Of a DNA stretch of 64,000 nt, positions 2,684 through 43,212 are shown in pieces (the stretch's first letter is position 1; each line of letters starts with the position of its first letter). A program made the translations under genes and the position numbers. Under the pieces are notes generated by a model, which did no database searches, was not told the origin of the DNA, and was given only the letters and a program-made list of their open reading frames with translations. The stretch is from Deinococcales bacterium (GTDB lineage: Bacteria; Deinococcota; Deinococci; Deinococcales; JAAFIG01). The stretch is taken from positions 128,214 through 192,213 of the forward strand of contig JAAFIG010000001.1 of NCBI GenBank assembly GCA_013298595.1, written 5' to 3'.

Positions 2684-2750
2684 GTAGGGGAGGGTCTTCT
2701 TGCTCGTAAGATAGCACCTGACGGGCTACTCGCGCTTGTACCCTCCCTGC
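2684..2750. repeat. Dispersed 40-bp hairpin repeat nested in an outer stem
   Basis: A copy of the dispersed family TTGCTC-(4-5 nt)-stem-aCC-loop-GG-stem-TCGCGCTT. Here the inner stem is TAGC/GCTA with loop TGAC. An 8-bp outer stem (GGGAGGGT / ACCCTCCC) encloses it. Other copies are at 30624, 31699, 31715, 31780, 31890 and 43152. Confidence 0.75.
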
Positions 2751-2816
2751 TTCAATATATTAGGCGAAATTTTTACTTTCAATTTCGTAAATAACTTTAA
2801 CCGCAACTGCGGTTAC

Positions 2817-3413
2817 TTACTTTACTCGCAATGGGCTGTTGCTGATTTCTCGAGTGGTGCTTTCATCGGCGACAACATCACCGTTGTTTGGATTAACGTA
2901 CAAGTAACTGACCAATTTGCCACTCCAGTAGACTTGTACCTCGAGTCCTCGAGGGCTGGGTAATAAGTACGCTCCAAATTTGAGATCGGTAGCTTCTTTA
3001 CGCAGGTCGGTTAAGTACGTGCCTAGGGCAACTTCGCTGGGTAGGGCGCTGGGGCGGTAGTTGCTGCGCTCGAGAAATGGTACGGGTTTGCCGTTGTTTG
3101 GATCAAGGGTTAGGGCTGCGACGACTTTGCCGTTGATCTCGAGGCTGGCTTTCAGGGCTGTGGGTTTTTCGGCTGTGAGTGCAACCCATGCTGCACCAAC
3201 TTTGAGGTCGCGGCGAATATCGGCGAGGCGACGTGGTACGTCGAGGGTACGTGGGTTCGGTTGCATGAAAAACGAGCTTGGACGACCCGCTGGCGCACTT
3301 GGGGCTGGGGCTTCGTTGTGATGGTTTATGTGTTCACCGGGTTCGGCTCGAGCAGACACTACTGTACTTAACAGCATGGTTGCTGCTAGTAAGGCTCGAG
3401 GGATTCGTTTCAT
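2817..3413 (-). CDS. Secreted PepSY-like protein of a two-component operon
   Basis: A 198-residue exported protein with a signal peptide (residues 1-23, cleavage near ARA). After a low-complexity His/Pro/Ala linker come two similar halves (about residues 60-115 and 125-190). Each ends in a 'V-x-x-L-x-L-DPNNGxxVP'-type motif, as in PepSY folds. Its ATG overlaps the stop of the histidine kinase gene (ATGA), so it is translationally coupled to it. A periplasmic modulator of the kinase is a reasonable inference, because PepSY proteins often sit beside such kinases. The PepSY assignment is by pattern only. Confidence 0.7.
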   Translation of the reverse strand: MKRIPRALLAATMLLSTVVSARAEPGEHINHHNEAPAPSAPAGRPSSFFMQPNPRTLDVPRRLADIRRDLKVGAAWVALTAEKPTALKASLEINGKVVAALTLDPNNGKPVPFLERSNYRPSALPSEVALGTYLTDLRKEATDLKFGAYLLPSPRGLEVQVYWSGKLVSYLYVNPNNGDVVADESTTREISNSPLRVK

Positions 3414-4801
3414 GACTTTACCTGTGTTGGATTGTACTGGGTTTGGGTTAAACGAGGATTGGAACTGGGCAGTTGTACCAAAAAAACCGCTCCTGTTTGG
3501 CTTAGCTCGAGACTGATGGTGCCGTTGTGTGCTCTGGTGGCTTCTTGGGCAATGGCAAGTCCGAGTCCTGTGCCGCTCGAGTGAGTGCCTTTTTGGAAGC
3601 GATCAAACAATTGCTTGTGTTGGGATTCGGGGATGCCTGTGCCATCATCCCAGACGCGGATGGAGATGGTTTCGGCGTTGCGTTCGGCACGAAGACCAAA
3701 TTCTTGTTTGGCAAAACGCAGTGCATTACCGAGTAAATTAGCAAAGATGCGGTTGAGTGCCACGGTATCACCAATGATCTCGAGGTCGGCTGGCAACTCG
3801 AGGTAAAAGGTTTTTTGTTGTTGCTCGGCAGCTCGAGTGTAGGTTTCTATGGTGCTGGAAAGGGCTTGTTGTAAAACCAGTGGCACTGGTTTTTCTAAAC
3901 CCGCCTCGAGTCTGGCTAATGCCAGTAAATCCTCGGTCAGAACACCCAAACTTTTGCAGCGCTCAAGCACTCGCTCAAGCACTTCGCGGTAAGCTGCGGC
4001 TTCTCTGGGGCGACGCAAAGCAACCTCGAGTTCGGTGCGAAGCACAGCAATCGGGGTGCGTAAATCATGGGCTGCATTAGCAGTAAAACGGCGTTGGGCT
4101 TCGACCAAGTGCTCGAGTCGGACAAGCATGGCGTTCAGGTCGCGTTTGAGTGCGCCGATTTCGTCAGGGCGAGCCGCATTCGGAATTCGGGCGGTTAAAT
4201 TTCCACTCGAGACAGCAGCAGCAGTACTGGCAATTTGTCGTAATGGGCGCAGTAACCACGAGGTCAGGACTTGTCCGAGTAGCAACGCAATCAGCGTGGC
4301 AGCCGATGCCCACAGCACAATCGAAGTTCGTAATTGCTCGAGACTGCTGGCACCACTAAGATCATCGGCGGCAACCACCACCACAAAAGCTAATTGGTAA
4401 ACACCACTGCTGGAGAAAATTGGGAAAGCAGCAGCAGCTCGAAAATTGTTTAAACCAGCCACTGTTTCTTGGTTACGCTCGAGGGTTTGCCAAGCAGAAG
4501 TTGGTAACATAAAGTCTTGACTCGAGCCGAGTGTTTCTTGAATGGTTTTATCGGGACGCAATAAAAACGCGCTGACATTACCTAAGCGTTCGGCTAATGG
4601 CGAAGGTGGCGGTTCGCGCAAACTCACTTGTTCGGCTTGTAATGCCAATTGCGCGTATTGCCGAGCCAAGGTTTGTAACTCGAGCCGAAAAGACCGCTCT
4701 AAACTCTGCGCGGTAATGGCATACAACAATGCACCTAAGCCCAGAACTGCCAGCAGCAAAGTCAGGCTAAATCCGAGCAACAAGCGCCAACGTAAACTCA
4801 T
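3410..4801 (-). CDS. Sensor histidine kinase (HAMP, HisKA, HATPase)
   Basis: A 463-residue membrane kinase. Transmembrane segments at about 7-29 and 155-185 enclose an extracytoplasmic sensor region of about 125 residues. A HAMP linker follows (about 186-240), then the H-box (AAHDLRTPIAVLR, His near 246), the N-box (NLLGNALRFA) and G-boxes (DDGTGIP, GTGLGLAIA). Its start overlaps the stop of the response regulator gene by 4 bp, and its stop overlaps the start of the PepSY-like gene by 4 bp. All three form one coupled operon. The signal sensed is unknown. Confidence 0.95.
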   Translation of the reverse strand: MSLRWRLLLGFSLTLLLAVLGLGALLYAITAQSLERSFRLELQTLARQYAQLALQAEQVSLREPPPSPLAERLGNVSAFLLRPDKTIQETLGSSQDFMLPTSAWQTLERNQETVAGLNNFRAAAAFPIFSSSGVYQLAFVVVVAADDLSGASSLEQLRTSIVLWASAATLIALLLGQVLTSWLLRPLRQIASTAAAVSSGNLTARIPNAARPDEIGALKRDLNAMLVRLEHLVEAQRRFTANAAHDLRTPIAVLRTELEVALRRPREAAAYREVLERVLERCKSLGVLTEDLLALARLEAGLEKPVPLVLQQALSSTIETYTRAAEQQQKTFYLELPADLEIIGDTVALNRIFANLLGNALRFAKQEFGLRAERNAETISIRVWDDGTGIPESQHKQLFDRFQKGTHSSGTGLGLAIAQEATRAHNGTISLELSQTGAVFLVQLPSSNPRLTQTQYNPTQVKS

Positions 4802-5466
4802 TTTTCCTCGCGCAGCACATATCCCATGCCTCGAACAGTATGAATTAAAGCTGTGGCAAAAGGTTTATCCACTTTGGCACGCAGATACGAAATAAACACA
4901 TCCACAACATTAGAATCAAAACCACTTTCGTCTGCCCAAATCGCCTCGGCAATCCGTGCTCGAGACAAGACTTCTTCAGGGTGCCGCAATAAAAACTCGA
5001 GCAACGCATACTCTTTTGCCGATAAAGCCAGCACTGTTCCAGCCCGTTCGACTCTTTGCTTAGCGGGGTCTAAACGCAAATCGGCAATTTGTAACTCGGC
5101 GGTACTACCCGCTCGTCTCGAGAGTGCCCGTAAACGCGCCAGCAATTCGCCAAAGTCAAAGGGTTTACATAAGTAATCATCGGCACCCGCGTCTAAACCA
5201 GCAATCCGATCACGCACATCATCTCGAGCTGTTAAAAAAAGTACAGGGCAACGAACCCCTGCCTCGCGGATACGTTTACAAGCCTCAAATCCGCTGCCAT
5301 CGGGTAGCATCACATCAAAAACCATTACATCGTACTCGGTCAGGGTTGCTTGATAAACAGCCTCTTCAGTTAAACCAGATTCGTCCACCACATAATTTTC
5401 TTCACGCAAACCACTTGCCAAAGCGGTTCGTAATTGGACTTCATCCTCGAGTAACAATAATCGCAT
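4798..5466 (-). CDS. OmpR-family response regulator
   Basis: A 222-residue two-component regulator, first gene of the operon with the kinase at 3410. The receiver domain (1-115) has the acidic pocket E7-D8, phospho-acceptor D51 (MVFDVMLPDG) and the conserved Lys in CKPF near 102. The C-terminal winged helix (about 125-220) ends in TVRGMGYVLRE, the usual OmpR wing. The spacer to the divergent enoyl-CoA hydratase gene is only 77 bp and must hold both promoters. An AATAAT box ends 5 nt before this ATG. Confidence 0.95.
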   Translation of the reverse strand: MRLLLLEDEVQLRTALASGLREENYVVDESGLTEEAVYQATLTEYDVMVFDVMLPDGSGFEACKRIREAGVRCPVLFLTARDDVRDRIAGLDAGADDYLCKPFDFGELLARLRALSRRAGSTAELQIADLRLDPAKQRVERAGTVLALSAKEYALLEFLLRHPEEVLSRARIAEAIWADESGFDSNVVDVFISYLRAKVDKPFATALIHTVRGMGYVLREEK

Positions 5467-5543
5467 GACACATTATTCGTAGCACATTTTAAGCATCAAT
5501 AACATATTGAAAAAAAAGTTTTCATAAGCCTTAAACTAAAGGC

Positions 5544-6320
5544 ATGAACCCATTGGTATTACTCGAGATCAAAGATTGTGTTGCCATTGTGACCATGAAC
5601 CGCCCTGAGGTTCGCAATGCCCTCTCCCCTGCCCTGCTCGAGGCATTACGCAACCAACTGGATGGGCTTGAACACAACAGCCAAATTCGTGCCATAGTTT
5701 TAACAGGCGCAGCCCATACTTTCTCGAGTGGGGCTGATTTAGACAACTTAAAAAACTTATTTGATGCCTCGGCAGAAATGCAAAAGCAAGACTCGAGCTT
5801 AATTGCTAACACCTTAAAACGTATTTACTCGTATCCCAAACCAATCATTGCCGCGATTGAAGGTGCAGCCGTGGCAGGTGGCGCGGGAATTGCTACGGCT
5901 TGCGATTTAATCGTGGCTGCCGAAAACAGCAAAATTGGTTACACCGAAGTTAAACTAGGCTTTGTCGCTGCAATAGTCAGTGTCTTTCTGATTCGTGCCA
6001 TTGGCGAAAAACACGCTCGAGAATTACTTTTGACAGGTAAACTCATCACTGCTCTCGAAGCGCAGCGCATCGGTTTAATCAACGAAATCGTACCAACAGG
6101 CACAAGTTTAGAACGCAGCTTAGAACTCGCCAAGCAAATCAGTGCAAACTCGAGCACCGCTTTAACCACCAGCAAAAACCTGATCTCGAGCTTATACAGC
6201 ATGAGTCTCGAAGACGGACTACAACACGCAGCACAAGTCAACGCATGGATTCGTGGCACCAACGATTTACGCGAAGGCGTGACTGCATTCCTCGAGAAAC
6301 GCGCACCAAAATGGCAGTGA
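5544..6320 (+). CDS. Enoyl-CoA hydratase/isomerase family protein
   Basis: A 258-residue crotonase-fold protein. Oxyanion-hole motifs are visible: FSSGADLDNL near residue 60 and AVAGGAGIATACDLIVA near residue 115. The catalytic region 'YTEVKLGF' (about 135) carries one Glu, with Val at the position where many hydratases have the second Glu, so isomerase or hydratase specificity is open. The start is probably leaderless: the -10 box TAAACT (5532-5537) ends 6 nt before the ATG, with TTGAAA near 5507. It stands alone, without other beta-oxidation genes nearby. Confidence 0.88.
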   Translation: MNPLVLLEIKDCVAIVTMNRPEVRNALSPALLEALRNQLDGLEHNSQIRAIVLTGAAHTFSSGADLDNLKNLFDASAEMQKQDSSLIANTLKRIYSYPKPIIAAIEGAAVAGGAGIATACDLIVAAENSKIGYTEVKLGFVAAIVSVFLIRAIGEKHARELLLTGKLITALEAQRIGLINEIVPTGTSLERSLELAKQISANSSTALTTSKNLISSLYSMSLEDGLQHAAQVNAWIRGTNDLREGVTAFLEKRAPKWQ

Positions 6321-6337
6321 AAGAGTATAATCAACCC

Positions 6338-6919
6338 ATGACGCAAGTGCTGCACAAAAACACAGCAGAACCGTTCACACCGCACTTATTTACCATTGCG
6401 GAATTTGAACGCATGTTCTTTGCAGAAGTCTTTGCACCAGAAACTCGAGCTGAATTACTCGAGGGAAAAGTGGTGATACTTACGCCCCAGAACGACCCAC
6501 ACAAATATATTCTCGCCAATTACGTGGATATTCTGCCCGATACTTACGGCAAACGCCTTGTGCAAATGCCACAAATGCCACTGAATGTACACCTCGAGTA
6601 TTACCAACCAGAACCCGATTTAGCCCTGTTAAAACCACCCAAAGAGCAATACAAAAACCGTAAAAACCAAGCTGAAGATGTGCTCTGGCTGATAGAAGTT
6701 TCAGACAGCACCCTCGAAACTGACCGCACCGTTAAACTCCCAATTTATGCTGCTTGTGGCATTCCAGAAGTATGGATTCATGATGTGGTAGCCCAGCAAC
6801 TCGAGGTGTACACCAAGCCAAACCAAGAGTTACGTCGTTACGGGCAGTTACGCACCTACAAGCAAGGCGAGAAAGTTGCGCCACAAGCCTTTGCAGAGGA
6901 ATTGCTCGAGTGGTGGTGA
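6338..6919 (+). CDS. Uma2-family (DUF820) putative endonuclease
   Basis: A 193-residue protein of the Uma2/DUF820 family, which has a PD-(D/E)XK-like fold. Visible motifs are ELLEGKVV (about 40), QPEPDLALL (about 85; catalytic Asp region) and DVLWLIEVSDST (about 110; E-x-S/K). I choose ATG 6338 rather than upstream starts because a perfect TATAAT (6326-6331) ends exactly 6 nt before it. This indicates a leaderless transcript. These genes are abundant in cyanobacteria, Chloroflexota and Deinococcota, often in mobile clusters, and here it opens the segment with xisI and the helicase. Confidence 0.85.
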   Translation: MTQVLHKNTAEPFTPHLFTIAEFERMFFAEVFAPETRAELLEGKVVILTPQNDPHKYILANYVDILPDTYGKRLVQMPQMPLNVHLEYYQPEPDLALLKPPKEQYKNRKNQAEDVLWLIEVSDSTLETDRTVKLPIYAACGIPEVWIHDVVAQQLEVYTKPNQELRRYGQLRTYKQGEKVAPQAFAEELLEWW

Positions 6920-6943
6920 CAATATTCTCGAGGTGATAACAGC

Positions 6944-7302
6944 ATGGCATTAAGTTCTAGTATTCCATTTGACAATCTAAGCGACTTCCAAAAAGCCATT
7001 TGGCAGGTGTTTACCCCATTGAAGAATGGCAAACAAGAGATGTTAAGTACGAATTTGTATTCGATACAGCAAACAACCAATACCAAGTCTATATGCAAGG
7101 TTGGCGCGGCAATCAGCGTTTGTACGGGACACTCATTCATATTGCCATTCGCAATGACTTAATTTGGCTCGAGGAGAACAACACCGAGATTGAAGTGGCA
7201 GTGCAGCTTATGCGTTTTGGTGTTCCGAAAGACAGGATTGTGCTGGGTTTTCATCCGCCGACACATCGGGCAGTGGAAGGTTTTGGGGCAGGAGAAGTAT
7301 AG
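6944..7302 (+). pseudogene. xisI: Frameshifted xisI-like gene
   Basis: From about 7010 to 7302 the frame encodes a nearly complete XisI-type protein: KYEFVFDTANNQYQVYMQGW, then LYGTLIHIAI, IWLEENNTEIEVAVQL and VPKDRIVLGFHPP. This matches the XisI (fdxN element excision controlling factor) pattern. It lacks a proper N-terminus in this frame. The expected N-terminal helix (FDNLSDFQKAIWQV) is instead in another frame starting at ATG 6944. One frameshift near 7000-7010 would join them. The usual partner xisH is not here; Uma2 is upstream. Sequencing error is an alternative. Confidence 0.65.
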
Positions 7303-7510
7303 GATTCTCGAGCAAACGATTGAAGTATTAAGCGATGCAAATTGTGCTTGGTTCTCATTTATTATGGCAACGCAGATAAGTTGGCAAAGATTACAACCTG
7401 TTACAGGTTCGAGAATCCTTCAAGCCGAATCTTGGAGGTTTTATACTTGGCTTGAGACACGTCAACCAATTGAGGAAAAACTGCCAATATACAATTGGGT
7501 GGTAGTTTAG
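7303..7510 (+). other. Possible gene remnant after xisI
   Basis: An open frame runs to TAG at 7508-7510. It has protein-like composition (WQRLQPVTGSRI, FYTWLETRQPIEEKLP) but no credible start or ribosome binding site, and it begins inside xisI in another frame. I do not recognise it. It may be a decayed gene of the acquired segment or chance. Confidence 0.2.
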
Positions 7511-7561
7511 AATTAAATATAATGTAGGCTCCTTGAAACTCTGATACGCTAAATTTAACTT

Positions 7562-10090
7562 ATGAAAGCCGAAACTCATCCAGCATATCAAGAGGAATCT
7601 CAACAAATAGATACAGCACGAGTAGCTATTGAACGTCACCTCAAATCTTTACCTGAAGCAGTAGATGCAGGAGTTTATCCTAGTGATTCGAGGGGTGCTG
7701 CATTTGAGATTTCTAAGCTCCGTGAAGGAATTGAATCACTTCGAGAAGGACCTTATTTCGGACGACTTGATTATGAATTACAGGACAAAAAATTTGAAAG
7801 GATTTATGTTGGCAAGCACGGTCTCAGAGAAAACGGTTGGCGCATTGTAAATTGGCAGTCCGCTATTGGTGGGAAAATCTATTCTGACAATGAAGTAGAG
7901 AGAATTGAGCTTAGAAATAGCATAACCACAATAAAAATCTCTCTAAGACGAAAGTTTTTGATAGTAGACTGGAAACTAAAAGACATATCTGATCTTATTA
8001 GAGGGACAATACAAACTGAAGATAAAGAAATAGCACAAAACAGTTCCTCACATAATTCACTACTTGAGGAAACCCTTAACCGCAGAAATTCAATTACACC
8101 ACAAGATATTATTGCCACAATACAAAAAGATCAAAACCAGTTAATTCGTGTTAGTCACAATCAAACGCTTGTAATAAACGGTGTGCCTGGCAGTGGAAAA
8201 ACTGCTATTCTTTATCATCGTCTATCGTATCTGGCTTATTCAGAAACAAATAATGGATTGACGCTTGACCGTGTTCGTATTATGGGACCAAACACATATT
8301 TTTTGCGCCAGATGACAGCTCTATTACCAAATCTTGAGATTATCGGATTGAGACAGTTTGTATTTGGTGCTTTTGCAATGAGAAAACTTGGTTTGCGTTT
8401 GTTTCAGGAAAATAGTTCAACACAATCCCAAACTTATATTCTTGAAGATCCTGTTCTCGATTTACAACTTAGTTTGGAACATACACCTGAAGAGCAACAT
8501 TTAGGCTGGATGCGTTCACACATACGTGGTGATTTGCGAATTAAGCAACTCCTTGAACGTTACTTGGAGACACTAACTTGGAATGTCAAAATTCCAATCC
8601 AAGGGTTGAGCTTAGTTAGTAAAAAAATTCCACAGGGAGATGATGCTTCTAGGTCAACTGAAATTTTGCTACTCAGTCATCAGGTGATAAGGCAAGTGCA
8701 CGCTGCATATGCAAATCTAACAGTTGACTTGAAAACCAAACAAAAAAACTTTCGTAGGAAATTAACTCAAATAGCATTAGAAAAAGCTGGACTTACTTTG
8801 AGTGAACAAATAAATTCAGAGATGGCTAATACTATTCGTGGCTTAGTTTTGCGCTTTACGAATCAATATTGGACACCGTTTCAAGTGTATACGGCGTATA
8901 CAAGGCTTTTTAAAAATTTTCAACTGCTCAAAGAATTAGGTAGTGATTTATTCACTTCAAAAGAACTGGCTTTGCTACTTGAACCTGAAAGCATGTCTCG
9001 AAATGAAGATGTTATAGAAGAGGATTCCGAAGATACTGAAATACAAGAACTACAACAAGAAAACCCAGACAACAAAAAATCCCGCCCCCCTCGAGTTATT
9101 GCTTTGCATGATCTACCCGGCTTAATGATGTTACATCAAATCGATACACCCGTGCAAAAGCCTGAATTTGACCACTTAATGATTGATGAAGCACAAGACT
9201 GCTCACCTTTGCAAATTTATGTTCTTAAAAACCTAATAGGCGATGGCACAATGACAATCGCCGGAGACATAGCACAGGGAATCCACGAATATAGGGGATT
9301 GAAAAGTTGGCAAGACATTAGTGCTATGTTTCCAAAAGAAAATTTTCAGATCGAGCAGGTTAAGTATAGCTATCGCTCAACTGTCGAAATTACAGTATTT
9401 GCAAATAAAGTATTGCAAAACTCAGGATTGCCAAATATTACAGAAGCAATACCTTTTCAGCGTCATGGATCAGAACCTACAGTATACATAGCTTCTAATA
9501 ATCTTACGATGTTACTCCAATTAGCAAAAGATGTAAAAGAACTTAAACAAGTAGAAACCCAAACAATTGGGATTATATGCAAGACACAAAATCAAAAGAT
9601 TGAAGTCCTAGACGCATTAGGGGAAAATGGTATCAATTTTTCAAGTATTGACAACGAAGTAGATCAAGAATTAACACAAATAAAAGTTTTAACTGCCATT
9701 GAAGCAAAAGGTCTCGAGTTTGAAGTTGTGCTTGTTCCATTTGCAGACGCAGATACATATTCCCGAGAAAAGCCATTTGATGCAAAGCTACTTTATGTGT
9801 GTGTTACTCGGGCTTTAGATTATTTGCGACTTTATCTAGTTGGGAAACCCAGTTTGTTATTTCCAAAAGAAAAATCATTAATTAAATCAAACTATCAACC
9901 TATCAAACCAATTGGAATGCCAGTTACACGAGAACGGCTTTCATTATCGTCTGACGAGGATGCTTTTCAACAAAATTTCTTTGACCGACGAGATGCAAAT
10001 CGAGGCATTGGGCATATAGCTAGAGATAATGGTCGCTTCGGCTCTATGCCTTTGTATGATGATTATAGTGACGAAGGATCACCTGATTAA
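7562..10090 (+). CDS. helD: HelD-like superfamily 1 helicase/ATPase
   Basis: An 842-residue UvrD/HelD-type motor. The N-terminal part has the HelD pattern: a coiled-coil start (EESQQIDTARVAIERHL), then PYFGRLDYE near 70 and ERIYVGKHGL..NWQSAIGG near 85-110. Helicase motifs are Q (DQNQL), I (GVPGSGKTAILYHR near 210), II (DHLMIDEAQD near 540), III/IV (GDIAQGIHEYRG, YSYRST) and V/VI (TAIEAKGLEFEVVLVP, LLYVCVTRALDYL). HelD recycles RNA polymerase; I infer this role or a DNA helicase role. The gene is AT-rich and has only two CTCGAG sites, unlike its neighbours, which suggests recent transfer. TAAATT (7550-7555) lies 6 nt before the ATG. Confidence 0.85.
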   Translation: MKAETHPAYQEESQQIDTARVAIERHLKSLPEAVDAGVYPSDSRGAAFEISKLREGIESLREGPYFGRLDYELQDKKFERIYVGKHGLRENGWRIVNWQSAIGGKIYSDNEVERIELRNSITTIKISLRRKFLIVDWKLKDISDLIRGTIQTEDKEIAQNSSSHNSLLEETLNRRNSITPQDIIATIQKDQNQLIRVSHNQTLVINGVPGSGKTAILYHRLSYLAYSETNNGLTLDRVRIMGPNTYFLRQMTALLPNLEIIGLRQFVFGAFAMRKLGLRLFQENSSTQSQTYILEDPVLDLQLSLEHTPEEQHLGWMRSHIRGDLRIKQLLERYLETLTWNVKIPIQGLSLVSKKIPQGDDASRSTEILLLSHQVIRQVHAAYANLTVDLKTKQKNFRRKLTQIALEKAGLTLSEQINSEMANTIRGLVLRFTNQYWTPFQVYTAYTRLFKNFQLLKELGSDLFTSKELALLLEPESMSRNEDVIEEDSEDTEIQELQQENPDNKKSRPPRVIALHDLPGLMMLHQIDTPVQKPEFDHLMIDEAQDCSPLQIYVLKNLIGDGTMTIAGDIAQGIHEYRGLKSWQDISAMFPKENFQIEQVKYSYRSTVEITVFANKVLQNSGLPNITEAIPFQRHGSEPTVYIASNNLTMLLQLAKDVKELKQVETQTIGIICKTQNQKIEVLDALGENGINFSSIDNEVDQELTQIKVLTAIEAKGLEFEVVLVPFADADTYSREKPFDAKLLYVCVTRALDYLRLYLVGKPSLLFPKEKSLIKSNYQPIKPIGMPVTRERLSLSSDEDAFQQNFFDRRDANRGIGHIARDNGRFGSMPLYDDYSDEGSPD

Positions 10091-30603: not shown

Positions 30604-30623
30604 ACAGACACAGAGGTTTCTTG

Positions 30624-30662
30624 ACCATAAGATGCACCTGACGGGCATGGTCGCCTGTCCTA
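30624..30662. repeat. Dispersed hairpin repeat (ATGC/GCAT variant)
   Basis: A variant of the 2684 repeat: TAAG, stem ATGC-aCC, loop TGAC, GGGCAT, then TCGCC. The stem pairs differ from other copies but still match. Confidence 0.6.
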
Positions 30663-31620: not shown

Positions 31621-31698
31621 GGGCTTAATTTACCTTATGCAGAACTGATACGGAATTAACTTAATCACTCTCGTTTGACCATCTTGACCCTGAAAGCA

Positions 31699-31757
31699 GC
31701 ACCTGACGGGCTTCTTGCTCGTAAAATAGCACCTCACGGGCTACTCGCGCTTGGGTC
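31699..31757. repeat. Dispersed hairpin repeat, partial + full copy
   Basis: A partial copy (GCACCTGACGGGCTT) runs into a full copy TTCTTGCTCGTAAAATAGC-aCC-TCAC-GG-GCTA-CTCGCGCTT, nearly identical to the copy at 2694. Confidence 0.7.
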
Positions 31758-31779
31758 GCAAAAAACGGTCAAACTGTCG

Positions 31780-31858
31780 TTCTTGCTCACAAGACAGCAC
31801 CGTCGCGCCCATGGCTGGACTGGTGGCACACAGGAGCGAAGCGGGCTGTTCGCGCTTC
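31780..31858. repeat. Dispersed hairpin repeat with enlarged loop
   Basis: Same flanks (TTCTTGCTCACAAG ... TCGCGCTT) and stem ACAGC / GCTGT, but the 4-nt loop is replaced by about 38 nt. Confidence 0.65.
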
Positions 31859-31889
31859 AAACGTTAATTCCGTGTTGTTGTTATTCCTT

Positions 31890-31930
31890 TTCTTGCTCAC
31901 AAGACAGCACCTTCGGGCTGTTCGCGCTTA
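31890..31930. repeat. Dispersed hairpin repeat (ACAGC/GCTGT variant)
   Basis: TTCTTGCTCACAAG, stem ACAGC-aCC, loop TTC, GG-GCTGT, TCGCGCTT: the cleanest copy of the family. Confidence 0.75.
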
Positions 31931-31991
31931 GTCGGTTAATCAGTCAAAATACACGACTGATTAACACAATTCCGTATGATACAGTCGAGGT

Positions 31992-33629: not shown

Positions 33630-33652
33630 CTTGCCTCGAGCGTCAGCTCAAC

Positions 33653-33784
33653 CTTTCAGGGCGAGGTGCAATTCCTCACCGGCGGTGAAGTCCTTAATCG
33701 GGAATAAGTCCGCGAGCTTCGAGAATTTATCACTCGAGGTTGAGGCAGAAAAGCTGCCACCGACGGTTAAAGTCCGGATGAAAG
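33653..33784 (+). promoter_or_regulatory. FMN riboswitch (RFN element)
   Basis: All conserved RFN blocks are present in order: AGGGCGAGGTGCAATTCC, TCACCGGCGGT, AAGTCCGCGAGC, a variable arm, GCCACCGACGGTTAAAGT and CCGGATG. P1 pairs CTTTCA (33653-33658) with TGAAAG (33779-33784). The ribosome binding site (GAAGGGG) starts directly after P1, so FMN probably blocks translation of the binding protein. The variable arm contains a CTCGAG. Confidence 0.95.
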
Positions 33785-33795
33785 AAGGGGAAATT

Positions 33796-35908: not shown

Positions 35909-35923
35909 ATCATCTTTGCACCC

Positions 35924-35957: not shown

Positions 35958-35961
35958 TGGA

Positions 35962-36378: not shown

Positions 36379-36869
36379 AACGGTGACACCAAATCCGTAT
36401 CAGCTTTACCAGAGTACGGAAAACCCATCACTCGAGCCAAAGCTAATGCCTGCCCTTTATGATGGAACTCATGAGTAATGGGATGCAACAACAACCAGCG
36501 TTTCGAGAGTGTTTCCTTAAATCCACGCGGTGAAACCCATTCAAATGGAGCATCCCAATCCGACCATTGCTCGAGCGCATTCAACACCACAGTATCCACT
36601 CGAGCAAACATAACCCGTAACTGGGCAACATCTTGCGGAGCATCTTCTGGCGTGGTTGGGTCTTGCTCCCAAGCAGTTTCAAAACCCACATGTCCCGCCC
36701 ACCACAAGTAACACTCAGCAATATGGGCATAGACATTTCGTAAACTCCCATACGCAAAATCTGAACGTTCTTGCACAAAAACAGCCTCAGGTAACGTCTC
36801 CAGCCAATCCAGAACACCAACTCGAGTGCGTTGCACCAAGCCATAAAACAACTGCAAATCCTGATTCAT
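36375..36869 (-). CDS. DinB-family protein
   Basis: A 164-residue four-helix DinB/YfiT-like protein. The metal-binding His triad is visible: YAHIAECY (about 47) and HPITHEFHHKGQ (about 130-140). Family members act as thiol-dependent transferases or are of unknown function. TATTCT lies 7 nt before the ATG on the minus strand. Confidence 0.85.
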   Translation of the reverse strand: MNQDLQLFYGLVQRTRVGVLDWLETLPEAVFVQERSDFAYGSLRNVYAHIAECYLWWAGHVGFETAWEQDPTTPEDAPQDVAQLRVMFARVDTVVLNALEQWSDWDAPFEWVSPRGFKETLSKRWLLLHPITHEFHHKGQALALARVMGFPYSGKADTDLVSPF

Positions 36870-36917
36870 GACCTCGAGAATACCACCAAGTGCTACGATG
36901 AACCTTGGAGGTAATTC

Positions 36918-37466
36918 ATGTCACAACCCAGCGGTGTCAGCATTCCCGAGATGTTCCAACAAAGTATCGAAGTGATCACCAAGCCCAGCGTTGCCACCTT
37001 CGAGAAGTACGAAAAGCACGGCACAATGCGCGATGCCCTAATTTACGTCGCCATTGGCGCAGCAATCATTGGTCTCCTTGGGCTGCAAGGTGGATTACTC
37101 AGCGCCATTGGCGGCATTATCAGTACCTTGGTCGGCTTTTTTGTCTTTGTTTACATGGTGCATTTTATTGGCAGCAAACAAGATGGCACGGGTACACTCG
37201 ACGAAGTGGCATACACATTTGCCCTGTTTTACATTCCATTTCAAATCCTGGTCTCAATCATCGGATTTGTTCTGATAATCAGCCTAATCGGAATTCTGCT
37301 GGTGCCACTCCTACCCTTAGCCGCTCTAGCCGCCAGCATTTACTTTGGTTACCTAGCCATTCAAAGCAGCATGAACATGACTGACAGCACCAAAATTGTC
37401 ATTACCCTAATACTCTCCGCCATTGTTTCAGGTATTGCCAGTAGCATCATCAGTGCCATACTCTAA
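36918..37466 (+). CDS. Yip1-domain membrane protein
   Basis: A 182-residue protein with a short cytoplasmic N-terminus (MFQQSIEVITKPSVATFEKY) and five hydrophobic segments from about 40 on, as in bacterial Yip1 (DUF1282-like) proteins. Function is unknown in bacteria. The ribosome binding site TGGAGGTAATTC is almost identical to that of the lipoprotein at 52248. Confidence 0.78.
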   Translation: MSQPSGVSIPEMFQQSIEVITKPSVATFEKYEKHGTMRDALIYVAIGAAIIGLLGLQGGLLSAIGGIISTLVGFFVFVYMVHFIGSKQDGTGTLDEVAYTFALFYIPFQILVSIIGFVLIISLIGILLVPLLPLAALAASIYFGYLAIQSSMNMTDSTKIVITLILSAIVSGIASSIISAIL

Positions 37467-37492
37467 ACCCAAAAAACAGGTAAGCTCGAGCA

Positions 37493-37996
37493 GTGCTACT
37501 CGCATTCACCATTTTGATTATTGTGCAACGCCTACTCGAGCTACGCCATGCCAAACAAAACCAAGCTTGGGCAATGGCAAATGGCGGCATCGAACACGCC
37601 CCAGAACACTACCCATACATGGTGGCACTACACTCGAGTTGGGTAGTTGCACTATTCCTCGAGGGTTTCCTGCGTGGGTCTACACTCTCGAGCTTATGGT
37701 GGCTCTGGCTGAGCATTTTTGTTATTGCCCAAATACTGCGCTACATTATTATCTCGAGCCTCGGCAAGCTCTGGAACACCAGAATTATTATTGTGCCAAA
37801 TGCAAAATTGGTACGTAGTGGCATTTACCAATATGTCAAACACCCCAATTACATGGTGGTCGCCCTCGAGTTATTTGTTACGCCCTTGATTTTTAATGCT
37901 TGGGTAACAGCCGTGGTATTTAGTGTACTGAATGCAATTTTATTACTTGGGTTTCGGATACCAGCCGAGGAAAAAGCTCTCGAGACAATCAAATAG
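37493..37996 (+). CDS. Isoprenylcysteine carboxyl methyltransferase-like membrane protein
   Basis: A 167-residue integral membrane methyltransferase of the ICMT-like class. Features: QRLLELRHAKQNQAWAMANGG near the start, LRYIIISSLGKLWNTRI, and the SAM-contacting LVRSGIYQYVKHPNYMVV (about 106-123) with RIPAEEKAL at the end. Bacterial members often accompany type III polyketide synthases and methylate lipid products; none is nearby. The start is GTG, 26 bp after the Yip1 gene. Confidence 0.82.
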   Translation: MLLAFTILIIVQRLLELRHAKQNQAWAMANGGIEHAPEHYPYMVALHSSWVVALFLEGFLRGSTLSSLWWLWLSIFVIAQILRYIIISSLGKLWNTRIIIVPNAKLVRSGIYQYVKHPNYMVVALELFVTPLIFNAWVTAVVFSVLNAILLLGFRIPAEEKALETIK

Positions 37997-38055
37997 CTAT
38001 TAACTACACAAAGATTTCACTCGAGATTCAAAGAGTTTGGGTTAAAGTGTTACCC

Positions 38056-38868
38056 ATGTCTGCTGTTGCCGAAAAAAAGTCTGGTTTACCTAAAATCGTT
38101 TGGGATCTCGTTTTTACTTTATTAATTCCAATTTCTATTCTGGCTCCGAGTTTGTCTCTTGGTAGCATTCATTTGCTTGGTTCTGAATTAAAAGATGGCA
38201 AAACTGTGGGTTTTGGTGTTGCCGACTTGATTGGTATTGTGCCTGCTTATGTTGTTGCAGCGCTGATACCTGTTATCTATATTTTGATTGATACTTTACG
38301 TACTAGAGCTTTCAATCCAATTACGACTGTAGCAGCCTCGAGTGCATTGATTGGTGGTGGGTTAGCGTTTTTGCAAATTGATGGCTGGGCATTTGCCCTG
38401 AAAGATTCGTATCGTCCAATTGTATTTGCGCTCATTATGGGTGGGAGCCTCATTTTAGGTAAACCTTTTTTTGCTATTTTTCTGAGATTTGCTATGCAGG
38501 ATGTGACAACTGAACGTAAACCGCTGCTCGAGAAGTTACTTTCTGCGCCAAGTGTGAAAACAGGTTTAACACTTGGCACAGCCGTGATTGCTATTGAAAG
38601 TTTGGTCATGGCAGGAATTAATTTCTGGGTAAATTTTCAAACAGTAACAGCGAAATTTGGCACAAAAGATTTTAACGGTTTAGTGGCAAAAGCCAATGGC
38701 ATCATGTACCTACCAAGTACCTTAGCCAGTTTTGCCGCTTTTGGTTTAGCTTATTACTTGGTGCAGCGTGGTTTAACCAAAGATTTTGGTGCTAAAGCCC
38801 AATTATTTGACGAAACACTTTGGGATGCGCTCGAGCAAAAACCTGTTGAAGAAACCCAACCCGCATGA
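38056..38868 (+). CDS. VC0807-like multi-pass membrane protein
   Basis: A 270-residue membrane protein with about six segments. Its layout (paired helices, KPFFAIFLRFAMQD loop, long C-terminal soluble tail) resembles the VC0807/septation-protein-A-like group. I cannot give a function. TAAAGT lies 7 nt before ATG 38056. The stop overlaps the AraC-regulator start (ATGA), so the two are co-translated. Confidence 0.65.
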   Translation: MSAVAEKKSGLPKIVWDLVFTLLIPISILAPSLSLGSIHLLGSELKDGKTVGFGVADLIGIVPAYVVAALIPVIYILIDTLRTRAFNPITTVAASSALIGGGLAFLQIDGWAFALKDSYRPIVFALIMGGSLILGKPFFAIFLRFAMQDVTTERKPLLEKLLSAPSVKTGLTLGTAVIAIESLVMAGINFWVNFQTVTAKFGTKDFNGLVAKANGIMYLPSTLASFAAFGLAYYLVQRGLTKDFGAKAQLFDETLWDALEQKPVEETQPA

Positions 38869-39695
38869 ATCCAGAACCATTACTCGAGCCTGATTTGCCA
38901 CTTGAAAAAGCGGTATTTAAGCGTTTTACAGAGTTTGATTGGCTCCACGCGACCTTTGTACAACACTCATTTGCACCGCATAGCCATGATGGTTTTGTGA
39001 TCAGTGTGATTGAACGAGGTGTTGAAGCTTTTTCGTATCAAAAAACTGTGCATCATGCAGTGGCTGGCAGTATTATCATGGTTAATCCGCATGAGGTTCA
39101 CACAGGTTACGCGCCACTCGAGTATGGTTGGCAGTATCGTTGTTTTTACCCCAGCATTGCTTTGCTCGAAAAAGTTGCAATGGGTTTAGGATGGTCTGGT
39201 ACACCTTTTTTTAAGCACGCTGTCACTCGAAATAGCACCCTCGAGAAACAATTGGTAGCAGCTCATCAGATGATGAATTCTGCGGCTTCACAGCTAGAGC
39301 AGGACACTATTTTACTCGAAGCATTCAGTGCTTTGCTGTTGTGTTATGCCGATACTCATCAGCCGCTTAAAAATGTGTCTCTTGAACCTGTAGCTGTACG
39401 GGTAGCAAGGGAGTTCTTAGAAGCCAATGTTGCCCAGAATCCAAGCCTCGAGCAACTTGCAGCCGTAACAGGTTTAAACGAATTTACCTTATTAAGAGCC
39501 TTTAAGCGATTGCATGGTTTACCACCACACGCTTTCTTAGTGCAACGCAGACTGGAGTTTGCTAAAACCGCTTTGCGTCATCAAGATGCTGTAGCTGATG
39601 TTGCCGCACAATTTGGTTTTGCTGACCAAGCACATTTCACTCGGCTTTTCAAACGCACTTTTGGGGTCACACCTGCTGTTTACCGCAATGGTTAG
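38865..39695 (+). CDS. AraC-family transcriptional regulator
   Basis: A 276-residue regulator. The N-terminal cupin-like domain (about 25-160) has HSHDGFVISVIERG and AGSIIMVNPHEVHTG. Two helix-turn-helix motifs lie at the C-terminus: LEQLAAVTGLNEFTLLRAFK (about 200) and VADVAAQFGFADQAHFTRLF (about 245). It probably senses a small molecule and may control its co-translated membrane neighbour at 38056, possibly an exporter. Start by ATGA overlap. Confidence 0.9.
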   Translation: MNPEPLLEPDLPLEKAVFKRFTEFDWLHATFVQHSFAPHSHDGFVISVIERGVEAFSYQKTVHHAVAGSIIMVNPHEVHTGYAPLEYGWQYRCFYPSIALLEKVAMGLGWSGTPFFKHAVTRNSTLEKQLVAAHQMMNSAASQLEQDTILLEAFSALLLCYADTHQPLKNVSLEPVAVRVAREFLEANVAQNPSLEQLAAVTGLNEFTLLRAFKRLHGLPPHAFLVQRRLEFAKTALRHQDAVADVAAQFGFADQAHFTRLFKRTFGVTPAVYRNG

Positions 39696-39712
39696 TAGCG
39701 TAGAATAAAAGT

Positions 39713-40420
39713 ATGCAACAAATAACCGATGGTGTCTGGATAGCCAACTTAGGAATAGCTAATATTGGTATTCTCGAGTTGCCCAGTGGTGGCTTAGCCA
39801 TTATAGATACAGGCGAAACTGGCTCGAGTGAAAAAATTGCTAAAGCCTTAGCAAAGAACAATTGGACACTACAAGACATCAAGCATATCCTTATCACCCA
39901 TGCACATTTTGACCATGTTGGTGATCTCGAGAAATTGGTACAAGCCTCAGGCGCAATCGTTTGGGCACACGCTAAAGAAACTCGAGTGATTCGAGGACTG
40001 GAAAAACAGCAACTACCAGCCGACGCAACTTTAAATGGCTTTAGCCGTTGGTTAAAAACCAAAGCCCGCACACCTCCTGTTGGTGTTGTTCACCGCGAAT
40101 TACAAGGCGCGACCAACCTCGAGACCATCATGGCTGGTTTACGCGCCATCCCACTGCCAGGACACGCGCCAGGGCAACTGGGCTATTACCTCGAGTCCAA
40201 CCGAACCTTATTTGGCGGCGATTTCTGCATGAACTTATTTGGTTTACGCACCCCTTTTGCTGCTTTTACGCTCGATATGCGCGAAGCCAAACGTAGTATC
40301 GCTGTGGCTGCCAAACTCGAGCCAAGCAACTTAATTGTTGGGCATGGCAAACCGATTCTACAAGTTGCAGCCGGTGCTTTAGAAAACTTATCACGCCGAT
40401 TAAACCCAACTCGAGTTTAG
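39713..40420 (+). CDS. MBL-fold metallo-hydrolase
   Basis: A 235-residue metallo-beta-lactamase-fold enzyme. The zinc motif THAHFDHVGD is near 62-71, further ligands are in PGHAPGQ (about 146) and Asp of GGDF (about 164), and the last His is in VGHGKP (about 205). It is similar to glyoxalase II or quinolone-responsive hydrolases, and the substrate is unknown. TAGAAT (39701-39706) ends exactly 6 nt before the ATG, a textbook leaderless start for this window. Confidence 0.9.
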   Translation: MQQITDGVWIANLGIANIGILELPSGGLAIIDTGETGSSEKIAKALAKNNWTLQDIKHILITHAHFDHVGDLEKLVQASGAIVWAHAKETRVIRGLEKQQLPADATLNGFSRWLKTKARTPPVGVVHRELQGATNLETIMAGLRAIPLPGHAPGQLGYYLESNRTLFGGDFCMNLFGLRTPFAAFTLDMREAKRSIAVAAKLEPSNLIVGHGKPILQVAAGALENLSRRLNPTRV

Positions 40421-40614
40421 CAATCACCACCACTACCCCCGTCAGAGCAATCACTCGAGGAATCAATGGCAGTGCTGGCAAGAAAGCTGGCATCTCCTGA
40501 ATTGCTAAGATTGGCTTTTTGTTGCGAAACTGGGCGCATTTTGTAAAGCAAACCCCAAATAAGCAACACAAAAGTCACAAGCACGAAAGTTAAACCGATT
40601 ACAATGTCAGTCAT
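40417..40614 (-). CDS. Small single-pass membrane protein with Ser/Asp/Cys/Gly tail
   Basis: A 65-residue protein: one N-terminal membrane helix (about 4-24), a basic stop, and a polar tail ending SSDCSDGGSGGDC. GGAGGAAG lies 4-5 nt before the ATG, which strongly supports translation. Its stop overlaps that of the MBL gene. Function unknown; the Cys/Gly-rich end could bind metal. Confidence 0.65.
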   Translation of the reverse strand: MTDIVIGLTFVLVTFVLLIWGLLYKMRPVSQQKANLSNSGDASFLASTAIDSSSDCSDGGSGGDC

Positions 40615-40734
40615 AGACTTCCTCCAACCTTAGAATACGAGGTTAGCCAGATTCTAGTTGCCAAAACCAAGACTTCCACGAGAATTGTAATCTGACTCGA
40701 GTTACCAAAAGCAAAATCGGCGCAGGATACAGTT

Positions 40735-41796
40735 ATGCAACAAACCATCCCTCGTGCTTCTGAACCCAAACCACCCTCGAGTAGCGCTGCACTCTGGGGC
40801 GGTGTAGCATTTAGTTTCTTGTTTACAGCTTTAATTTGGGTTTTAGGCGAGCGCTTAAACGCTGTTAAACTTGCGCCAGATACAGGAGCCGCTCATTACT
40901 ACTGGAAACTGCCTGAACCCACATTCTGGACACACGCCAGCGCTTGGGGGTTGTACTTCTTACACCAAATCGCTGTCTGGTGGACAATCTGGTACGCCCA
41001 AACCAAAGTGGGCAAATACACCAATGGTTTACACAAAATCAACATCACAGCTATGGTGATTAACGCCGTATTTATAGTTTTGCACCTCGTACAAACCCAT
41101 ATTTTCTACGATGGACTCGCCCAAGATGTCAGTGTTTTCTCGAGTCAAGGCAGTGTAATCATTTTATTGGTACTGGTTTTAATCATGGAAAACCAACGAC
41201 GTGGCATGTTCTTTGGTAAGCCCGCACCACTGAGTAGCGAAGTTGTGCATTTCCTCAAAAAGTACCATGGGTACTTCTTTGCTTGGGCAACCATTTACAC
41301 CTTCTGGTACCACCCTATGGTCAATACCAGCGGGCACTTGATTGGCTTCATTTACATGTTCCTTTTAATGCTTCAAGGCTGTCTTTTTTACACTCGAGCA
41401 CACACCAACCGCTGGTGGACGTTTGCTCTCGAGTTCGCAGTGTTACTGCACGGCACGCTGGTTGCCATTAACCAAGGAAAAGGATTGTGGACAATGTTCT
41501 TCTTTGGCTTTGCTGGAATTACAGTAGTCACTCAACTGTACGGCATTAAAATTCCGCAGTGGTCGCGTATTGCTTTACTCGTTGCGTACTGGGCAGGGGT
41601 AGTCTATGTGTACTCGAGCCAAGAATTGTTCAAACTCAACGAAATTATTCGCATCCCACTGATCGATTACCTAATGGTCTTTGTGATTACAGGTTTGGTC
41701 TGGCTTGGCTTATGGGTTGCTAAAAAAATCAATCCCAAATGGCAAATGACCCCACCAAAAAACCTTACCTCGAGTACACCCGAAACCGCGCAGTGA
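40735..41796 (+). CDS. Multi-pass membrane protein of unknown function
   Basis: A 353-residue protein with about nine membrane segments (first at about 20-40, last at about 310-335). His, Trp and Tyr residues are frequent in and near the helices (HASAWGLYFLHQIAVWW, LKKYHGYFFAWATIYTFWYHP), which may mean a cofactor or metal site. I do not recognise the family. The end overlaps the convergent gene at 41765 by 32 bp. Confidence 0.7.
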   Translation: MQQTIPRASEPKPPSSSAALWGGVAFSFLFTALIWVLGERLNAVKLAPDTGAAHYYWKLPEPTFWTHASAWGLYFLHQIAVWWTIWYAQTKVGKYTNGLHKINITAMVINAVFIVLHLVQTHIFYDGLAQDVSVFSSQGSVIILLVLVLIMENQRRGMFFGKPAPLSSEVVHFLKKYHGYFFAWATIYTFWYHPMVNTSGHLIGFIYMFLLMLQGCLFYTRAHTNRWWTFALEFAVLLHGTLVAINQGKGLWTMFFFGFAGITVVTQLYGIKIPQWSRIALLVAYWAGVVYVYSSQELFKLNEIIRIPLIDYLMVFVITGLVWLGLWVAKKINPKWQMTPPKNLTSSTPETAQ

Positions 41797-42292
41797 CATC
41801 AAAAGTCACACAGGGCTGCTCGCCTTTGTACACAGGGGAAACACAAACCGTCACTTTGCCACCCGCACCCACTGTATCGGGTTTTAACGTCCCAGCCCGA
41901 TCTGATAATTTACCAAATTTCCCCACCAATTCGAGATTCTTATAGCCTTTACTTGGCACGGTACGATGAAACGCATCATCGCCAGGATTGACCAACGGAG
42001 TTAATGGCAACCACTGCCCTTTGCCTTTGTCATCTCGAGCGAACAACGTCGCGGAAACTCGAGGGATGACATAAAATTCGCGGCGACCACCCCAGCGTTC
42101 ACGCAATGCGAGTGGCAAAAGCAATTTGCAACTCGAGTATGCTTCGTCTGGTAGCACAAAATTGATTCGTTCAGTTTTGAAATACGTATCTGTACAAACC
42201 AAACTGATTTTTTCTCGAGGTACAGTCACCGTGGCATTTTGCGCGATTGCGATACCGAAAACACCAAACAGCACCAACACAATTTTTTTCAT
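41765..42292 (-). CDS. Secreted hypothetical protein
   Basis: A 175-residue exported protein. Signal peptide 1-17 (FGIAIAQ). The mature part is beta-rich, with four Cys that could form two disulfides (VCTDTYF, SSCKLLL, VCVSPV, QPCVTF). ATG 42292 is chosen because AAAGGAG lies before it. No family recognised. The 3' end overlaps the membrane gene. Confidence 0.65.
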   Translation of the reverse strand: MKKIVLVLFGVFGIAIAQNATVTVPREKISLVCTDTYFKTERINFVLPDEAYSSCKLLLPLALRERWGGRREFYVIPRVSATLFARDDKGKGQWLPLTPLVNPGDDAFHRTVPSKGYKNLELVGKFGKLSDRAGTLKPDTVGAGGKVTVCVSPVYKGEQPCVTFDVTARFRVYSR

Positions 42293-42320
42293 ACAAACTC
42301 CTTTGACCTCGAGCAATACA

Positions 42321-42344
42321 GTGAGGCACGCCTCACCGCTACGG
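42321..42344. repeat. Short palindrome GTGAGGC-AC-GCCTCAC + CGCTACGG
   Basis: The same unit as at 33503 (GAGGC-NN-GCCTC then GCTACGG), with a compensated C-G to T-A stem change. It sits between two minus-strand genes. Confidence 0.6.
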
Positions 42345-42345
42345 A

Positions 42346-42849
42346 TTATTTGATAATTTCAACTTTGACTTGATCGGTAGCAGGGGTGTACTGACAACTA
42401 AACTCAGCTTTTTGCACAGTTTCTTGCGCTGGACAAATCACCCAACCATCCCAGCGTTTACCATCGGCACTCGAGGAGATTTGCGAAGAAATTTCTTCGA
42501 CATCAGGGAATTTTGCGTTTTCATCATTTAAGTAGTTACGCACCTCAGATTGGCAACGCTCCACCAAACTCGAGTTGGCAATACCACCACTGGTATCCTC
42601 GGCAATACCACTTGGCGAGGATCGAGGCAGCAATGCAAAAACTGTCAAACCCAGCACAGGAATTAACAACAAAAACCACCAGTTATTCCTCGCTCGAGGT
42701 TGCAAATCTGCCCGCACTTCCGAGCGCACATCAGCCCGATACGACTCGAGTGCCCGAATTTTTTGCACTTGCAAATCACGTTCTAGTAACGCTCGAGCTT
42801 CGGCTTCTTCCTCGGCTCGAATCCGATTTTTTTCTTCTTCGCTGAGCAT
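42346..42849 (-). CDS. Membrane protein with N-terminal charged coiled coil
   Basis: A 167-residue protein. Residues 1-55 are a very charged Glu/Arg coiled coil (EEEKNRIRAEEEAEARALL). One membrane helix lies at about 58-75 (WFLLLIPVLGLTVFALL). The outer domain (80-167) has three Cys (ERCQSE, VICPAQ, FSCQYT). ATG 42849 is supported by TACGCT ending 6 nt before it. No family recognised. Confidence 0.65.
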   Translation of the reverse strand: MLSEEEKNRIRAEEEAEARALLERDLQVQKIRALESYRADVRSEVRADLQPRARNNWWFLLLIPVLGLTVFALLPRSSPSGIAEDTSGGIANSSLVERCQSEVRNYLNDENAKFPDVEEISSQISSSADGKRWDGWVICPAQETVQKAEFSCQYTPATDQVKVEIIK

Positions 42850-43073
42850 AGAAGCAGCGTAAAGCAAGGCAAATGAGAGCTAACTCATGGTGGCTATCGT
42901 ATGTCAAAACAAGTTTAGTTTGAACACAGTAATGTAATTTATCTGGACTCGAGATCGCCCTAAAAAGTAAAAACATTTTCCCTGACGCAACTATAACGAT
43001 GAAGCATACTTCGCATTGGCTCTCATTTCATCAGAAAAGTCTTACTGAAGGTCGAATTATAATCAATCGTTGC

Positions 43074-43212
43074 AAGCCACTCTCACCTAACCCTCTCTCG
43101 CCAGCAAAAGAGGGCTTTAGAACATTTTTTTCCTTTCTTTCGCTGGCGAGAGAAGCGCGAACAGTCCGAAAGGTACTGTCTTGTGAGCAAGAAGTCGGAT
43201 TGAGAGTGGCTT
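43074..43212. mobile_element. MITE-like element with perfect 12-bp terminal inverted repeats
   Basis: Ends AAGCCACTCTCA and TGAGAGTGGCTT are exact complements. Inside, a second exact 12-bp inverted repeat (TCTCTCGCCAGC at 43094 / GCTGGCGAGAGA at 43142) and one minus-strand copy of the dispersed hairpin repeat are present. 139 bp, no ORF. It lies in the 42868-43288 gap, which has no gene otherwise. Confidence 0.75.
43152..43195. repeat. Dispersed hairpin repeat, inverted copy (ACAGT/ACTGT)
   Basis: Read on the minus strand: TTCTTGCTCACAAG, ACAGT-aCC, loop TTTC, GG-ACTGT, TCGCGCTT. The stem change C-G to T-A is compensated. Confidence 0.7.

What the first reader, a model, noticed from the sequence alone, without database searches (positions are those of the whole stretch)
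2684..43195. Dispersed hairpin repeat with compensatory stem changes
Seven copies (2684, 30624, 31699, 31715, 31780, 31890 and inverted at 43152) share TTGCTC-x-AAGA, a stem, aCC-loop-GG and TCGCGCTT. The stem bases vary as pairs: TAGC/GCTA, ATGC/GCAT, ACAGC/GCTGT, ACAGT/ACTGT. Covariation means the fold matters, in RNA or as DNA cruciform. It may be REP-like, spread by a RAYT-type transposase, or a processed small RNA.
Basis: seen in the sequence. Interest (0 to 1): 0.68.

Follow-up and report, generated by a model that had tools for sequence, protein, structure and literature searches.

The report
Mobile 37-base DNA hairpin in Deinococcales
The scattered hairpin is a real, very small piece of mobile DNA (about 37-39 bases) that has inserted hundreds of times in one group of uncultured Deinococcus relatives, often between a C and a T and often in the loop of another hairpin, including the anticodon loop of spare tRNA genes; its paired bases vary freely but together, so its shape rather than its stem sequence seems to be what matters.

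Summary
The window holds seven copies: one split by another, one with a 41-nt loop. Covariance models found 51, 93, 64 and 134 copies in the four held genomes of this uncultured Deinococcales family, and dozens in two genomes of a second family. The outer stem is almost free in sequence, yet 98% of pairs form and 60 cells change on both sides (shuffles: 18). Foot (TTCTTG), bulge (AARAY) and cap (GCACC-TNAC-GGGC) are conserved.

It is mobile. Removing the copies from a 330-bp repeat in the window leaves 137 bp that align without a gap to four element-free genomic copies. Elsewhere a copy is present or absent within flanks 99.5% identical. No target duplication; 69 of 111 independent sites lie at C|T (5% expected). 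Copies sit in each other's cap loops, in GTAG-palindrome loops, and between positions 32 and 33 of four redundant tRNA genes.

C|T is where TnpA-REP (RAYT) cuts beside REP hairpins. Most carriers encode divergent RAYT-like proteins, but several of these flank GTAG palindromes, and the element lacks the GTAG tag. So it works like a REP but is not a GTAG or CGTC REP; the enzyme is inferred. No sign of RNA function.

The parts
2697..2735 (+). Element copy, TTGCTC subfamily, in the loop of a GTAGGGGAGGGT/ACCCTCCC palindrome; C|T at both junctions
   Evidence: a close relative on C23 has an empty counterpart on C2, flanks 88% identical over 135 bp
30618..30654 (+). Element copy, GACCAT/ATGGTC stem, between convergent genes next to a GGACAG/CTGTCC palindrome
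31648..31977 (+). 330-bp host repeat: a 137-bp MITE-like unit (terminal inverted repeats 17/20) carrying four elements
   Evidence: rejoined flanks align without a gap to element-free copies at C47:5581, C34:163307, C45:39534, C41:3448
31681..31759 (+). Element copy (31681-31711 plus 31751-31759) split by the nested copy 31712-31750; sits in the loop of GTTTGACC/GGTCAAAC of the MITE
   Evidence: unsplit version at C39:14200 and C3:30635
31712..31750 (+). Element copy, TTGCTC subfamily, nested in the previous copy at GGGC|TTGGGTC (C|T)
31780..31855 (+). Element copy with a 41-nt loop insert related to another repeat (C12:32022, C45:47611, C50:161)
31890..31927 (+). Element copy, TTGCTC subfamily, 3-nt loop; empty site CCTT|TTAGTCGG in C39
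43155..43193 (-). Element copy, TTGCTC subfamily, with the compensated pair T-A in place of C-G in the inner stem; C|T at both junctions

Best explanation
This is a non-autonomous, REP-like DNA element of 36-40 nt that moves as a folded single strand. Shown: it begins with T (TTCTTG or TNTCTTG) and ends with C (CGC), and it has landed precisely, without target duplication, usually between a C and a T, so that both junctions tend to read C|T; the site is often in a hairpin loop (its own cap, a GTAG palindrome, a tRNA anticodon arm). Inferred: a Y1 HUH enzyme of the RAYT/TnpA-REP type recognises the folded strand by its unpaired features (TTCTT foot, 5' bulge AARAY, bulged A, cap TNAC), cuts at C|T on either side and joins the excised strand into another C|T. 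The stem only has to pair, which is why its sequence drifts with compensation.
For: Base-precise filled and empty sites: 137-bp MITE with 0 to 4 elements; G001:C238 against C107, flanks 99.5% identical over 214 bp; IS3 orfA interrupted twice. C|T at 69 of 111 independent sites against 5.3% background. Nesting at GCACC|T in 13 copies. Hairpin-loop enrichment 20/99 against 240/2970 nearby C|T sites, p=1.6e-4. Four tRNA genes entered between positions 32 and 33. Covariation with conserved unpaired bases. TnpA-REP cleaves at C|T 5' or 3' of REP hairpins and needs a bulge in E. coli (PMC8266576). RAYT-like proteins with HxH and Tyr in all four genomes of the family and a fragment in G012.
Against: No GTAG or other known tag. 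No RAYT gene is flanked on both sides by the element: two of about twelve have a copy within about 150 bp, and one of those lies inside a GTAG palindrome. RAYTs occur in 20 of 104 non-carriers, and none was found in the carrier G016 (58% complete). Neighbouring copies are mostly direct repeats, unlike REPINs. The replication-strand test was uninformative. 38% of sites are not C|T.
Confidence: 0.55

Rival explanations
1. The same mobile DNA hairpin, but moved by an enzyme other than a RAYT: an IS200/IS605 TnpA acting in trans, or an unrecognised HUH or other recombinase that senses hairpin shape.
For: The GTAG tag is missing; the RAYT genes have GTAG palindromes as apparent cognates; every near-complete carrier also has some IS200-type TnpA.
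Against: The C|T cut and the bulged hairpin match TnpA-REP biochemistry (PMC8266576). IS200-type TnpAs differ between carriers, some are truncated or broken, and no copy lies within about 1.5 kb of them.
Confidence: 0.3
2. An RNA element (cis-regulator, small RNA or mini-intron) whose fold is selected in transcripts and which spreads at the RNA level.
For: Strong covariation; four of four tRNA insertions are in sense and lie in the anticodon loop, a classical intron position.
Against: No orientation bias: 20 same and 24 opposite between co-directional genes, 15 and 15 inside ORFs. A-C mismatches (15) outnumber G-T (6). Interrupted tRNAs have intact equivalents for Gln(TTG), Leu(TAG) and Arg(TCT). 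No Rfam family.
Confidence: 0.06
3. Passive copies: hairpins multiplied by carriage on MITEs, by template switching and by replication slippage, with covariation produced by quasi-palindrome correction rather than by selection.
For: Some copies ride on MITEs; several carry an extra quasi-palindrome TCTTGCTTCGCAAGA; a perfect tandem array exists at G000:C56.
Against: 111 copies with distinct flanks, precise entry into unrelated sites (IS3 gene, tRNAs, palindromes, itself), C|T preference, and conserved bulges that template switching would erase. It may still help to explain why stems change in pairs.
Confidence: 0.07

Closest known systems
REP sequences with RAYT/TnpA-REP (E. coli y and z REPs; GTAG superfamily)
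   Same: 20-40 nt imperfect palindrome with a conserved bulge, tens to hundreds of copies, non-autonomous; junctions at C|T, the TnpA-REP cleavage site (PMC8266576); RAYT-like proteins in the carriers
   Different: No GTAG tag; stem sequence nearly free with compensation; neighbours direct rather than inverted; about a third of independent copies inside ORFs of at least 120 aa; self-nesting in the cap loop; insertion in tRNA anticodon loops
CGTC-REPs (PMC3733652)
   Same: Small mobile palindromes that lack a dedicated, flanked transposase; also found inside genes
   Different: CGTC tag absent from the end of the element; bulged two-part stem instead of a perfect 8-9 bp stem
IS200/IS605 ends and their MITE derivatives (IS608, ISDra2)
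   Same: Single-strand folded ends with unpaired bases, insertion 3' of a short target without duplication (known biology)
   Different: One hairpin only, no left and right ends, no tnpA or tnpB inside; dinucleotide rather than tetra- or pentanucleotide target
Integron attC sites
   Same: Folded single-strand site read by shape, with extrahelical bases and a variable stem (known biology)
   Different: No R/L boxes, no cassette or integrase link seen; here the hairpin itself is the inserted unit

Membership tests
GTAG/CGTC REP superfamilies | Short (20-40 nt) palindrome in many copies | tested here: met
   36-40 nt, 51 to 134 copies per genome of the family
GTAG/CGTC REP superfamilies | GTAG (or GTGG) or CGTC tag at one end of the hairpin | tested here: not met
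   5' foot is TTCTT in 132 distinct copies, 3' end GC; reverse complement likewise without tag
GTAG/CGTC REP superfamilies | Boundaries at C|T, the TnpA-REP cleavage site | tested here: met
   69 of 111 independent sites C|T against 5.3% background; site from PMC8266576
GTAG/CGTC REP superfamilies | REPtron: RAYT gene flanked by copies of its REP | tested here: inconclusive
   Copies within about 150 bp of 2 of about 12 RAYT-like genes; several flanked by GTAG palindromes instead
GTAG/CGTC REP superfamilies | Cleavage and joining by the RAYT | not testable with these tools
   needs purified protein and oligonucleotides
REPIN/BIME (inverted REP doublets) | Neighbouring copies mostly in inverted orientation | tested here: not met
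   29 direct against 5 inverted neighbour pairs within 200 nt
IS200/IS605 MITE | Distinct left and right end hairpins of an IS200/IS605 element | tested here: not met
   a single hairpin spans the whole unit; no element match around the IS200 genes
Transcription terminator | T-run directly 3' of a G+C-rich hairpin | tested here: not met
   3' flanks are variable after the first T; both orientations relative to genes
Structured RNA or intron | Sense orientation in transcripts and G-U tolerance in stems | tested here: not met
   no orientation bias; 6 G-T against 15 A-C mismatches

The most novel reading that the evidence does not exclude
A minimal mobile DNA element recognised by hairpin shape and unpaired bases rather than by stem sequence, and aimed at C|T in hairpin loops, including its own cap and tRNA anticodon loops at position 32/33, moved by an enzyme that is not a GTAG-type RAYT. 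That would be a new class of single-strand transposition system.
Probability: 0.25. Interest if true: 0.8.

Novelty: new variant of a known kind. Interest (0 to 1): 0.6.

Why it matters
How REPs and similar hairpins spread is still poorly understood. This family offers many base-precise filled and empty sites, a recent insertion or loss in 99.5% identical flanks, defined ends, and natural compensatory variation that separates what the mobilising enzyme may read (foot, bulge, cap) from what only has to pair. Entry exactly at tRNA position 32/33 and at GCACC|T in its own cap makes loop targeting testable with short oligonucleotides and two or three candidate RAYT-like proteins.

Tried and rejected
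(2) PF01797 in six-frame search missed the RAYT-like proteins; NF047646 found them. (3) IS200-type TnpA as the mobiliser: different subfamilies in different carriers, some truncated, no element within about 1.5 kb. (4) Recurrent genes near copies: no shared transposase recognised among the ORF clusters. (5) Replication-strand bias: skew too weak, no signal. (6) Viral contigs: no match to a degenerate pattern. (7) The first pairing model (columns 18-34 of A1) was dropped when further copies showed that the pair next to the outer stem (13-34) is the conserved one. (8) tRNA mini-intron: rejected because intact genes exist for the interrupted anticodons that could be checked and there is no general sense bias. 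(9) A first parser mis-anchored loops and was replaced. (10) No description of this family was found in the open literature searched; subscription papers could not be checked.

Full report
CONTEXT. The window is part of a 4.58-Mb, 68-contig metagenome-assembled genome (G000, contig C1:128214-192213) of an uncultured Deinococcales bacterium; the best protein relatives are Deinococcales MAGs.

OBSERVATION. All seven copies are real, with small coordinate corrections. One (31681-31759) is split by another (31712-31750), and one (31780-31855) has a 41-nt loop. A corrected strict pattern hits 11 places in the genome and none when reversed. A covariance model of 12 copies (R1) found 69 matches at E<=10, 48 of them below 0.06. 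They show a wider family: TTCTT, a 6-bp outer stem, a 5-6 nt 5' bulge (AARAY), GC, a bulged A, CC, a TNAC loop, GG, GC, the closing outer stem, GC. R1 held only one of the six outer pairs, so the complementarity of the others in copies found by R1 is not built in.

COVARIATION. On 34 diverse copies 98.2% of cells pair; 60 cells change on both sides (shuffle mean 17.9, 0 of 500 as high); the covariation score is 0.473 against 0.154, and slid structures pair 30-48%. Over 95 distinct copies outside the TTGCTC subfamily there are 22 distinct pairs of outer arms whose outer five bases are fully complementary, such as GACCAT/ATGGTC, GATTCT/AGAATC, GATGCC/GGCATC, GTTTCC/GGAAAC and GGAGCT/AGCTCC. Many of these copies were found with a descriptor that rewards pairing, so the R1 set is the fairer test. 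Mismatches are A-C (15) more often than G-T (6), which gives no sign of RNA wobble. As single-stranded DNA two of five test copies fold as drawn, one with a shift of one pair, and two into alternatives. The TTGCTC subfamily replaces two outer pairs by invariant T.C and C.T (rarely T.T) mismatches but keeps covariation around them.

DISTRIBUTION. Model R2, built with the corrected stem, gives 51, 93, 64 and 134 copies at E<=0.01 in the four held genomes of the family. Among 111 Deinococcota genomes only these four, two genomes of one genus in a second family (34 and 35 copies) and one stray match carry it. A degenerate DNA pattern found none in viral contigs.

MOBILITY. (a) The cluster at 31648-31977 is a 137-bp MITE-like unit carrying four elements (40, 39 nested, 76 and 38 nt; 137+193=330). 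Rejoining the flanks gives 137 bp that align without a gap to four element-free genomic copies. (b) In G001 a copy is present on C238 and absent on C107 within 214 bp that are 99.5% identical. (c) In G002 two copies interrupt an IS3 orfA next to its orfB (the identification as IS3 is my reading of the translation). (d) Copies sit in the cap loop of other copies at CACC|T (13 cases). No target duplication is seen. The element starts with T and ends with C, so junctions tend to read C|T: 69 of 111 independent sites against 5.3% background. The three MITE sites themselves (C|A, G|T, T|T) are exceptions. Sites are enriched in hairpin loops (20/99 against 240/2970 nearby C|T sites, p=1.6e-4), often the loops of GTAG palindromes.

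TRNA GENES. In G003 a tRNA array (C5:1500-5500) has three genes interrupted in the anticodon loop, and a fourth lies at C35:157294-157488 with three elements. By my reading of the sequences the element lies between positions 32 and 33 each time (C|T, or C|C in one). Intact Gln(TTG), Leu(TAG) and Arg(TCT) genes exist elsewhere, so splicing need not be assumed. About 0.17 insertions into tRNA genes were expected at random.

NOT AN RNA ELEMENT, AS FAR AS TESTED. Orientation is unbiased: 20 same and 24 opposite between co-directional genes, 15 and 15 inside ORFs. About 29% of independent copies lie inside ORFs of at least 120 aa, some of which may be spurious.

ENZYME. IS200-type TnpAs in the carriers differ between genomes, and no element lies within about 1.5 kb of them. 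NF047646 revealed RAYT-like proteins in all four genomes of the family and a 122-aa fragment in G012; scores stay below that model's cut-off, while Pfam Y1_Tnp passes its cut-off on the two proteins tested. An alignment of nine shows an invariant M-P-[ND]-H-x-H and a tyrosine in R-x-Y-I. RAYT-like genes occur in 5 of 7 genomes with an element match and 20 of 104 others (Fisher p=0.006, not corrected for kinship), and a tree does not set the carriers' proteins apart as one clade. GTAG palindromes flank several of these genes; at G000:C18 our element sits in the loop of such a palindrome just upstream of the gene. PMC8266576 reports that TnpA-REP cleaves at C|T 5' or 3' of the REP hairpin, that joining abuts the T, and that the E. 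coli bulge is needed. These facts make a RAYT-type enzyme the best candidate, but the missing GTAG tag and the lack of a RAYT gene flanked on both sides by this element leave it unproven.

CLASSIFICATION. It works like a REP. It fails the tag that defines GTAG and CGTC REPs (PMC3733652) and the inverted-doublet form of REPINs (29 direct against 5 inverted neighbour pairs), so I do not file it as either. No Rfam family matched it at gathering score in the window, and the open literature searched describes none like it.

SHOWN AND INFERRED. Shown: existence, covariation, family-restricted abundance, precise insertion, C|T preference, nesting and anticodon-loop sites. Inferred: that the substrate is single-stranded DNA, that a HUH enzyme of RAYT type is responsible, and that foot, bulge and cap are its contacts.

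Noticed in passing
window 1-64000: CTCGAG occurs 390 times against about 13 expected from base composition, far above any other palindromic hexamer; a HIP1-like over-represented palindrome.
   Followed up: partly
G003:C5:600-5500 (L117, L268): An array of about 20 mostly redundant tRNA genes on one strand in about 4 kb, next to a normal set elsewhere in the genome; it looks like an acquired tRNA array.
   Followed up: partly
window 31648-31977; G000 C47:5581-5717 and others: A 137-bp MITE-like repeat with 17/20 terminal inverted repeats, present with zero to four elements inside.
   Followed up: yes
G000 C12:32022, C45:47611, C50:161; loop of window 31780-31855: A second repeat (GTCGCGCCCATGGCTGGACTGG...GAGCGAAGC) that also occurs as the 41-nt loop of some element copies.
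   Followed up: partly
G000 C7:82464, C10:21075, C12:70138, C29:31407; G001 C107:295: Several copies carry an extra TTGCTTCGCAAGA in the foot, a perfect small hairpin that looks like a template-switch product.
   Followed up: no
G000:C18:24189-24915, G002:C78:26568-27345, G003:C18:10031-10667: RAYT-like genes at what looks like one conserved place, just upstream of a tryptophanyl-tRNA synthetase-like gene, suggesting vertical inheritance; the G003 copy is broken by a stop.
   Followed up: partly
G003:C32:4356-4679 (L107): A 125-aa Y1_Tnp-like protein in which I see no HxH motif.
   Followed up: no
G000:C56:44154-44303: Four identical element copies in perfect head-to-tail tandem with a 37-nt period.
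   Followed up: no
window 33648-33793: FMN riboswitch (RF00050, 93.9 bits), unrelated to the finding.
   Followed up: no
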